NCBI GenBank assembly: GCA_944323885.1
Contig: CALUUD010000001.1
Location: 62,001 to 126,000, forward strand
Reading direction: 5' to 3'
DNA: 64,000 nt
From: an uncultured Helicobacteraceae bacterium
GTDB lineage: Bacteria; Campylobacterota; Campylobacteria; Campylobacterales; Helicobacteraceae
Both the position numbers and the translations under genes were made by a program. The notes under the pieces are model-generated. The model searched no databases, was not told the origin of the DNA, and saw nothing but the letters and a program-made list of their open reading frames with translations. Positions 33,132 through 35,844 of the stretch are shown piece by piece; positions within the stretch are counted from its first letter, which is position 1; every line of letters starts with the position of its first letter.

Positions 33132-33428
33132 TTAGTTTCCTCTATTGTTCATACAGCTTCGTTTGCAAGATTCACTACTTGATGTACCTTTTCCATATAT
33201 TTTATTACAATCTTGCATGCAGCCTTTAATTTTTATAGATTCGCACATTCCTCTACTTTTATCACAATTACTAAGACACTCTACCCTGGTTTTACCACTT
33301 TGAATACATTTATTCAAACAATTATTATAAACTTCATTACAATTACTAGATGAAAAACCAAATTTATCTTTATTATCACAACCAACAATAAAAATTAAAA
33401 AAAATAAAAACAAAAAAACATATTTCAT
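33132..33428 (-). CDS. Cysteine-rich lipoprotein with CX3C motifs
   Basis: I do not recognise this gene. The 98-residue product has a lipoprotein signal with lipobox IVGC (Cys17), so it is a membrane-anchored periplasmic or surface protein. The mature part holds ten more cysteines at 30, 37, 41, 51, 55, 62, 70, 74, 88 and 92. Those at 30-62 are mirror-symmetric (C-x6-C-x3-C, 9 residues, C-x3-C-x6-C). A second pair of CX3C motifs is separated by 13. This suggests disulfide-linked helical hairpins. The ATG at 33428 is chosen over the preceding TTG, with AGG 7 bases upstream. Confidence 0.8.
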   Translation of the reverse strand: MKYVFLFLFFLIFIVGCDNKDKFGFSSSNCNEVYNNCLNKCIQSGKTRVECLSNCDKSRGMCESIKIKGCMQDCNKIYGKGTSSSESCKRSCMNNRGN

Positions 33429-33458
33429 CAAGAAGCCTATTGTATTACTGAAATATTG

Positions 33459-33467
33459 ATTATATCA
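33459..33467 (-). promoter_or_regulatory. Extended -10 promoter of the lipoprotein gene
   Basis: On the minus strand TGATATAAT (TGn plus a perfect TATAAT) lies 31 bases before the lipoprotein ATG, in the gap after the tRNA cluster. The gene therefore probably has its own promoter and does not depend only on read-through from the tRNA operon. Confidence 0.5.
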
Positions 33468-33480
33468 TAAGAATAAAAAA

Positions 33481-33556
33481 TGGCGACCCCTAGAAGATTT
33501 GAACTTCTGTTTCTACTGTGAAAGAGTAGTATCCTTGACCGCTAGATGAAGGGGTC
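33481..33556 (-). tRNA. trnE: tRNA-Glu (UUC anticodon), copy A
   Basis: The acceptor GACCCCT pairs with AGGGGTC, the anticodon stem CTACT/AGTAG holds CTTTCAC with anticodon TTC, and CCA is encoded. It is the last gene of the five-tRNA operon. It differs from the other Glu gene (33725-33799) in the acceptor, anticodon and T stems. Confidence 0.93.
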
Positions 33557-33564
33557 AATGATAA

Positions 33565-33641
33565 TGGCGGAACGGACGAGGCTCGAACTCGCGACCCCCT
33601 GCGTGACAGGCAGGTATTCTAACCAACTGAACTACCGCTCC
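33565..33641 (-). tRNA. trnD: tRNA-Asp (GUC anticodon)
   Basis: The acceptor GGAGCGG pairs with CCGTTCC (one G-T pair), the anticodon stem CCTGC/GCAGG holds CTGTCAC with anticodon GTC, the T loop is TTCGAGC, and CCA is encoded. Confidence 0.95.
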
Positions 33642-33643
33642 AA

Positions 33644-33719
33644 TGGTGGTCACTACAAGACTCGAACTTGTGACATCTACCTTGTAAGGGTAGCGCTCTA
33701 CCAACTGAGCTAAGCGACC
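33644..33719 (-). tRNA. trnV: tRNA-Val (UAC anticodon)
   Basis: The acceptor GGTCGCT pairs with AGTGACC, the anticodon stem CTACC/GGTAG holds CTTACAA with anticodon TAC, and CCA is encoded. Only 2 bases separate it from tRNA-Asp. Confidence 0.95.
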
Positions 33720-33724
33720 AAAAG

Positions 33725-33799
33725 TGGTGACCTCTAGGGGATTTGAACCCCTGTAACCACCGTGAAAGGGTGGTATCCTAACCGCTAGATGAAGAGGCC
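33725..33799 (-). tRNA. trnE: tRNA-Glu (UUC anticodon), copy B
   Basis: The acceptor GGCCTCT pairs with AGAGGTC, the anticodon stem CCACC/GGTGG holds CTTTCAC with anticodon TTC, and CCA is encoded. This is the second Glu gene of the cluster, with the same anticodon and different stems. Confidence 0.93.
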
Positions 33800-33808
33800 A
33801 GACAAAGA

Positions 33809-33884
33809 TGGTGACCCGTGTTGGATTCGAACCAACGGCCCATTCCTTAAAAGGGAATTGCTCTACCTGCTGAGCTAACGGGTC
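33809..33884 (-). tRNA. trnK: tRNA-Lys (UUU anticodon)
   Basis: The acceptor GACCCGT pairs with ACGGGTC, the anticodon stem ATTCC/GGAAT holds CTTTTAA with anticodon TTT, and CCA is encoded. It is the first gene after the perfect sigma-70 promoter. Confidence 0.95.
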
Positions 33885-35385: not shown

Positions 35386-35844
35386 TTAATTAGATATCTT
35401 TTCTTTGCCTCTATATGTAGCATAAACTTGACTACTTCCATCTTTATATAAGATTAAAACATCATATACATCATCTTCCATGCCTTGCTCCATTCCAGGA
35501 CTTCCTTGTGGCATACCTGGAACTGATATACCTATTACATTTTGCGGCTTTTCTTTTAATAATTTCTCAACCTCAGTATATGGAACATGCCCTTCTATGA
35601 TGTAACCATCAATAACAGCTGTATGACAACTAATATATTCAGATTTAATACCATATTTTGATTTTATACTCAAAATATCATTTGTTTTTATCTCTTCTAC
35701 ATCAAACCCACTCTTTGACATATAATCACTCCAAAATACACAACATCCACAAGTAGGACTCTCATACACAAGTAGTTTTTCAACAGAATCTGCATATAAA
35801 AAATTTACAAAAAATAGAATAAAAATAATATTTAATAATTTCAC
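35386..35844 (-). CDS. DUF411-family exported metal-binding-type protein
   Basis: A 152-residue protein with a Sec signal peptide (cut near residue 18). It has the DUF411 core: YESPTCGCCVFW near the mature N terminus, CHTAVIDGYIIEGHVP in the middle and VPGMPQGSPGME near residue 110. Members are often found with copper-handling genes, and the CGCC and Met-rich segments suit metal or thiol chemistry, but the function is unproven. Here it is the last gene after pflB-pflA-recR, not in a copper locus. Confidence 0.82.
   Translation of the reverse strand: MKLLNIIFILFFVNFLYADSVEKLLVYESPTCGCCVFWSDYMSKSGFDVEEIKTNDILSIKSKYGIKSEYISCHTAVIDGYIIEGHVPYTEVEKLLKEKPQNVIGISVPGMPQGSPGMEQGMEDDVYDVLILYKDGSSQVYATYRGKEKISN

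What the first reader, a model, noticed from the sequence alone, without database searches (positions are those of the whole stretch)
33132..33428. Lipoprotein with mirror-symmetric nested cysteines
After the lipobox, six cysteines are arranged C-x6-C-x3-C / 9 residues / C-x3-C-x6-C, which would allow three stacked disulfides across a helical hairpin (30-62, 37-55, 41-51). A second CX3C-x13-CX3C unit follows. The pattern recalls twin-CX3C helical hairpins of eukaryotic intermembrane-space proteins, but in a bacterial lipoprotein of 98 residues. I know of no named family.
Basis: partly seen in the sequence, partly recalled or inferred. Interest (0 to 1): 0.6.

Follow-up and report, generated by a model that had tools for sequence, protein, structure and literature searches.

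The report
Disulfide-stapled helical-hairpin lipoprotein of Helicobacteraceae
A small lipid-anchored protein of Helicobacter-like bacteria, in no protein-family library searched here, is predicted to be two helical hairpins sharing one long helix and stapled by five disulfide bonds, a design otherwise known from plant defence peptides, scorpion toxins and mitochondrial proteins; in many relatives its gene sits beside one for a protein that resembles a lipid-carrying bridge between the two cell membranes.

Summary
Window 33132-33428, minus strand, encodes a 98-aa lipoprotein with C30-x6-C37-x3-C41-x9-C51-x3-C55-x6-C62, then C70-x3-C74-x13-C88-x3-C92. It is a conserved family: 19 distinct intact copies, all with the lipobox Cys and all ten further Cys; only the hairpin loop C41-C51 varies (5, 6, 9 or 10 residues). 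AlphaFold2 gives helices 30-43, 48-78 and 83-97: two hairpins sharing a central helix. The three proposed pairs each sum to 92 and the second unit's to 162, i.e. one antiparallel register per hairpin. No Pfam, NCBIfam, PHROGs or PADLOC family matches. A secreted, mostly acidic one-hairpin family with the same six-Cys module occurs in many Campylobacterales and is homologous. The best solved analogues are alpha-hairpinins. In three genera the gene lies directly upstream of a TM-anchored, beta-groove, TamB-like gene, so I propose an envelope lipoprotein accessory to that bridge (inferred). The window's genome lacks detectable DsbB/VKOR but has an HP0231 (DsbK)-like oxidase candidate. Disulfides, location and function are untested.

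The parts
33132..33428 (-). lipoprotein gene, 98 aa (ATG at 33428; a TTG at 33431 is possible)
   Evidence: homologues
33378..33428 (-). signal peptide and lipobox (residues 1-17, ...I-V-G-C17)
   Evidence: sequence; lipobox Cys invariant
33243..33341 (-). first hairpin, six-Cys module C30-C62 (proposed pairs 30-62, 37-55, 41-51)
33153..33221 (-). second hairpin, CX3C-x13-CX3C, C70-C92 (proposed pairs 70-92, 74-88), sharing helix 48-78
33459..33464 (-). TATAAT -10 box with TG before it, conserved as TATAATC upstream of the gene in four of five genomes of the genus
33481..33884 (-). tRNA array Lys-Glu-Val-Asp-Glu directly upstream; same order upstream of the gene in six genomes (five of the genus and G010)

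Best explanation
The gene makes a small envelope lipoprotein. After export and lipidation at C17, the mature chain is tethered to a membrane by a short flexible linker (18-29). Residues 30-97 fold into helix A (30-43), long helix B (48-78) and helix C (83-97): helix A packs antiparallel on the first half of B through three disulfide rungs (30-62, 37-55, 41-51) and helix C on the second half through two (70-92, 74-88). The disulfides are probably put in by an HP0231 (DsbK)-like oxidoreductase. The result is a rigid, basic, protease-resistant rod. The first hairpin is mainly scaffold; the conserved basic surface of helix B and the second hairpin (R59, M61, K68, Q72, N75, G79, K80, K89) is the working face. 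The most likely task is docking or accessory to the TM-anchored, beta-groove, TamB-like protein encoded directly downstream in several genera, i.e. in traffic or contact between inner and outer membrane, comparable in role (not in fold) to E. coli YnbE with YdbH. Supported by sequence and prediction: lipoprotein, ten-Cys family, two hairpins. Inferred: oxidation state, pairing, membrane location, partner and task. Split of confidence: disulfide-laddered hairpins about 0.85; accessory to the TamB-like protein about 0.35.
For: All ten Cys and the lipobox Cys invariant in 19 distinct proteins, spacings x6, x3, x3, x6, x7, x3, x13, x3 fixed, only one loop varying. AlphaFold2 helices 30-43, 48-78, 83-97, pLDDT 89-95 over residues 30-90. 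Homologous one-hairpin secreted family with the same six-Cys module: module-only profile E 3.3e-9, score above all 200 column permutations that keep the Cys fixed. Solved analogues with the same nested pairing: vicilin alpha-hairpinins, pairing Cys1-Cys4, Cys2-Cys3 per PMC7191063. HP0231-like protein with CGYC in the window's genome and in all eight lipoprotein-bearing genomes tested. Gene directly upstream of the partner on the same strand, in genera g3, g7 and g8, although the upstream neighbour differs (IleRS, tRNA array, other). Within the family sampled, 11 of 11 genomes with the lipoprotein carry a strong partner match, against 11 of 25 without it. Partner: N-terminal TM helix, repeated beta-groove, C-terminal helices; two of nine members match NCBIfam TamB, best E 3.2e-7; TamAB chain among structure hits, weakly. 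Conserved non-Cys residues concentrate in helix B and after; net charge +3 to +8.
Against: In the window's own genus the two genes are apart: the partner is in a hemH-ccsBA-partner-rsmH-ftsL cluster, and at least eleven related genomes have the partner without the lipoprotein, so it is at most an accessory. Gene adjacency within related genera can be inherited neighbourhood: malic enzyme is retained next to the pair too. The partner gave no Pfam match and no hhalign match to E. coli YdbH or TamB as single sequences. By the E. coli sorting rule an Asp after C17 would keep the window's protein in the inner membrane (own knowledge; the rule is untested in Helicobacteraceae, and relatives have N, G, S or E there). 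No DsbB, VKOR or Thioredoxin_4-type DsbA was found in the window's genome.
Confidence: 0.4

Rival explanations
1. Same disulfide-laddered fold, but the function is unrelated to the TamB-like neighbour: a free-standing lipoprotein of the envelope or cell surface, for example binding LPS, peptidoglycan or a host or competitor molecule through its basic face.
For: Genes are apart in the window's genus; gene is next to tRNA array/flgG there and next to a flagellin gene in another family; patchy presence (22 of 399 genomes of the order match, of which 12 are ten-Cys lipoproteins); own promoter.
Against: Adjacency to the same gene in three genera with different upstream neighbours.
Confidence: 0.37
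2. The cysteines stay reduced and line a helical bundle that binds metal ions such as copper, as CX3C pairs do in copper storage proteins (Csp).
For: CX3C pairs on helices also occur in Csp-type proteins (own knowledge); the window's genome lacks DsbB/VKOR; one subgroup of one-hairpin relatives has His-rich ends.
Against: Spacing is mirror-symmetric with an even number of Cys in one register per hairpin, as disulfide rungs need; loop length varies freely; exported to the periplasm; HP0231-like oxidase present; the model is two hairpins on a shared helix rather than a four-helix core; Foldseek to Csp1 poor (E 7.8).
Confidence: 0.1
3. A periplasmic protease inhibitor or antimicrobial module, by analogy with plant alpha-hairpinins, some of which inhibit trypsin through an Arg in the loop or kill microbes.
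For: Same fold class as alpha-hairpinins; basic charge.
Against: The loop is the least conserved part and has no fixed Arg; the conserved residues lie on helix B and the second hairpin; it is lipid-anchored.
Confidence: 0.06

Closest known systems
alpha-hairpinins (plant defence peptides; vicilin leader peptides, PDB 7uv4, 7uv2, 7lve) and kappa-KTx scorpion toxins (2ndd)
   Same: Two antiparallel helices with CX3C on each, nested pairs Cys1-Cys4 and Cys2-Cys3 (PMC7191063); the Cys of the one-hairpin profile align in register.
   Different: Bacterial lipoprotein; third outer rung 30-62; two hairpins share one helix; sequence similarity too weak for homology (E 0.019 at best).
twin-CX3C small Tim and twin-CX9C (CHCH) proteins of the mitochondrial intermembrane space
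   Same: Helical hairpin with nested disulfides in an oxidising compartment between two membranes (own knowledge; PMC3759932 listed).
   Different: No Pfam or PDB sequence match to any of them; lipid anchor; extra rung; no chaperone hexamer evidence.
one-hairpin secreted proteins of Campylobacterales (unnamed; alignment A2)
   Same: Same six-Cys module C-x6-C-x3-C-x7..10-C-x3-C-x6-C; homologous by reciprocal profile search.
   Different: No lipobox, no second hairpin, acidic or neutral (net -13 to 0), other gene neighbours: M42-like peptidase, SnoaL-like, small unknowns.
YnbE, the small lipoprotein of the E. coli ydbH-ynbE-ydbL operon
   Same: Small lipoprotein gene next to an AsmA/TamB-superfamily-type gene, annotated as putative intermembrane phospholipid transport lipoprotein.
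   Different: No sequence similarity beyond the lipobox; no Cys-hairpin; gene order differs (ynbE lies downstream of ydbH, here the lipoprotein lies upstream).
Csp copper storage proteins
   Same: CX3C pairs on helices.
   Different: Csp: four-helix bundle with thiols in the core; here even, mirror-symmetric spacing with one register; poor fold match.

Membership tests
alpha-hairpinin fold | C-x3-C-xn-C-x3-C | tested here: met
   C37-C41/C51-C55 and C70-C74/C88-C92, conserved in 19 proteins
alpha-hairpinin fold | two antiparallel helices joined by a loop | tested here: met
   AlphaFold2 model, predicted only
alpha-hairpinin fold | disulfides Cys1-Cys4 and Cys2-Cys3 | not testable with these tools
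   register is compatible; no coordinates or experiment
alpha-hairpinin family (by descent) | significant sequence similarity to plant members | tested here: not met
   best E 0.019 with A2, none with A1 except a toxin at 0.75
small Tim / twin CX3C (zf-Tim10_DDP) or CHCH | match to the Pfam families or solved members | tested here: not met
   no match in Pfam at E 10 for P0001 and at E 1 for six relatives nor in PDB sequences
bacterial lipoprotein | signal peptide with lipobox and invariant Cys | tested here: met
   IVGC17; Cys invariant
YnbE-type partner of an AsmA/TamB-like bridge | gene linked to such a bridge | tested here: inconclusive
   adjacent in g3, g7, g8, not in the window's genus or f2; partner class rests on NF047952 hits in 2 of 9 members and a predicted fold
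YnbE (by descent) | sequence similarity to YnbE | tested here: not met
   only the lipobox aligns
Csp copper storage protein | Cys-lined four-helix bundle | tested here: not met
   three helices, two hairpins on a shared helix; no Pfam match

The most novel reading that the evidence does not exclude
Bacteria independently evolved a disulfide-laddered helical-hairpin module in the periplasm, the counterpart of mitochondrial intermembrane-space proteins, and in Helicobacteraceae a two-hairpin lipid-anchored form serves as a structural partner of a TamB-like bridge between the membranes.
Probability: 0.3. Interest if true: 0.65.

Novelty: new variant of a known kind. Interest (0 to 1): 0.45.

Why it matters
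It defines a conserved protein module absent from the family libraries searched here (19 ten-Cys and 26 six-Cys distinct sequences) with a clear structural hypothesis: a periplasmic disulfide ladder. With five predicted disulfides in about 70 residues it would be a demanding natural substrate for the unusual HP0231-type oxidative pathway of Helicobacter relatives that lack DsbB, and so a direct test of that pathway. If the link to the TamB-like protein holds, it also points to an accessory of an uncharacterised inter-membrane bridge in Campylobacterota.

Tried and rejected
Chance pattern: rejected (homologues). Overlapping or artefactual ORF: rejected, conserved on the minus strand between tRNA array and flgG. 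Pfam, NCBIfam, PHROGs, PADLOC: no match above cut-off; weak hits such as Vanabin-2 (E 0.23), Lepto_8Cys (0.94) and BhsA (0.027) were judged composition or signal-peptide effects. Plasmid collection: none. Fold search of the lipoprotein in PDB and BFVD: no match at E <= 0.001, so it adds nothing. Flagellar link (flgG neighbour here, flagellin in f2): rejected as the neighbours differ and most relatives lack either. Paralogue in the window's genome: none found. hhalign of the partner with E. coli YdbH and TamB: negative. The viral scan with A2 could not run for lack of a conserved stretch.

Full report
OBSERVATION. The gene lies on the minus strand, 33428 to 33132, between a tRNA array and flgG. 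The six-Cys pattern occurs once in the window and never in 100 shuffled windows. A TATAAT box with a preceding TG, 53-30 bases before the start region, is kept in four of five genomes of the genus, so the gene probably has its own promoter after the tRNA genes.

FAMILY. One-protein search of 59 relatives found eleven strong homologues besides the window's own (44-72% identity). Genome collections name carriers such as Helicobacter rodentium, H. valdiviensis, H. burdigaliensis, H. turcicus and several unnamed Helicobacteraceae, plus one other Campylobacterales MAG. In 19 distinct intact proteins all ten Cys and the lipobox Cys are kept; spacings x6, x3, x3, x6, x7, x3, x13, x3 never change, and only the C41-C51 loop does: 9 in sixteen, 10, 6 and 5 in one each. 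One MAG copy (L043) is broken by a frameshift.

A WIDER MODULE. A profile of the lipoproteins, searched in 399 genomes of the order, also met short secreted proteins with one hairpin and no lipobox. A profile built from those alone found 39 genomes and, in return, the lipoproteins, including the window's (E 1.3e-5). All of the returned loci that I read have C-x6-C-x3-C-x7..10-C-x3-C-x6-C. Comparison of the modules alone, without signal peptides, gives E 3.3e-9 and a score of 37.4 against a mean of 16.3 (maximum 29.6) in 200 permutations of the other columns with the Cys fixed, so the likeness exceeds the Cys spacing. These sequences were found by similarity, so the test is somewhat favoured. 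The one-hairpin proteins are acidic or neutral (net -13 to 0) and the lipoproteins basic (+3 to +8).

STRUCTURE. AlphaFold2 with the 12-row alignment gives helices 30-43, 48-78 and 83-97, pLDDT 89-95 over residues 30-90, pTM 0.60. All three first-hairpin pairs sum to 92 and both second-hairpin pairs to 162, matching turns centred at 45.5 and 80.5. On an ideal helix the Cys at 51, 55 and 62 face one way and 70 and 74 about 100 degrees round (my arithmetic), so helices A and C pack on neighbouring faces at opposite ends of B: a rod, not a bundle. Coordinates were not given, so distances are not measured. Fold searches gave nothing significant. By sequence the best solved matches are vicilin alpha-hairpinins for the one-hairpin profile (E 0.019, Cys in register) and a kappa-KTx toxin for the second hairpin (E 0.75). 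These folds have nested pairs Cys1-Cys4 and Cys2-Cys3 between antiparallel helices and recur in unrelated plants, scorpions and cone snails (PMC7191063). I take this as analogy, not descent.

OXIDATION. The window's genome has no DsbB match even at E 10, no VKOR and no Thioredoxin_4 match. That would weigh against disulfides, but enterohepatic Helicobacter and Wolinella are known to lack DsbI and to rely on HP0231 homologues (PMC4460558). An HP0231-type protein (nearest solved entries 3tdg and 8pxe) with a CGYC site is present in the window's genome (G000:C3:19747-20445) and in all eight lipoprotein-bearing genomes tested.

NEIGHBOURHOOD. In genera g3, g7 and g8 the lipoprotein gene is directly upstream, on the same strand, of a gene for a 640-710 aa protein, although the upstream side differs: divergent IleRS in g3, the tRNA array in g7, other genes in g8. 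That protein has an N-terminal TM helix, a repeated beta-groove and C-terminal helices in the model; two of nine members match NCBIfam TamB (best E 3.2e-7), and a TamB chain is among weak fold hits. Pfam and single-sequence hhalign to YdbH and TamB were negative, so 'TamB-like' is probable, not proved. In the sampled family 11 of 11 genomes with the lipoprotein have a strong partner match, against 11 of 25 without (not corrected for shared ancestry). In the window's genus the two genes are apart; the partner sits in a hemH-ccsBA-partner-rsmH-ftsL cluster. The lipoprotein is therefore at most an accessory.

MECHANISM. Best reading: a lipid-tethered, disulfide-stapled rod whose first hairpin is scaffold and whose helix B and second hairpin carry a conserved basic face (R59, K68, Q72, N75, K80, K89), probably docking to the TamB-like bridge or its surroundings. 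The fold is well supported, the task is inferred. Rivals are a free-standing envelope or surface lipoprotein, a thiol metal store, and a protease inhibitor or antimicrobial module; the last two fit the conservation less well.

VERDICT. A real, conserved family, unnamed in the libraries searched, with a known fold principle in a new setting: new variant of a known kind.

Noticed in passing
L063 1498-1773, L074, L076, L077, L080, L081: A subgroup of the one-hairpin secreted relatives has His-rich ends (such as ...EHGHH) around the six-Cys hairpin and sits beside a lipoprotein and, in three of these loci, a WD40-like beta-propeller gene; possible metal binding.
   Followed up: partly
L069, L070, L073, L079, L083, L086, L091, L092: One-hairpin genes are followed on the same strand by genes for an M42-like peptidase, a SnoaL-like protein and small unknown proteins in varying combinations.
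   Followed up: partly
L097 852-8416 (G000:C1, about 638850-646420): In the window's genome the TamB-like gene lies between a ccsBA-like cytochrome c biogenesis gene and rsmH/ftsL-like genes, after hemH and a thioredoxin-like lipoprotein.
   Followed up: no
window 33481-33884: tRNA array Lys-Glu-Val-Asp-Glu with two tRNA-Glu(TTC) genes; the order is kept upstream of the lipoprotein in six genomes.
   Followed up: yes
window 35386-35844, minus: Small exported protein with CGCC motif that looks like the DUF411 (copper-related) family by eye; not tested.
   Followed up: no
L043 3858-4174: The lipoprotein gene in Helicobacter sp. SUG33 (MAG) is split by a frameshift: decay or assembly error.
   Followed up: no
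L102 (G029): One g3 genome has the TamB-like gene directly beside IleRS without the lipoprotein, so the lipoprotein can be lost from the pair.
   Followed up: yes
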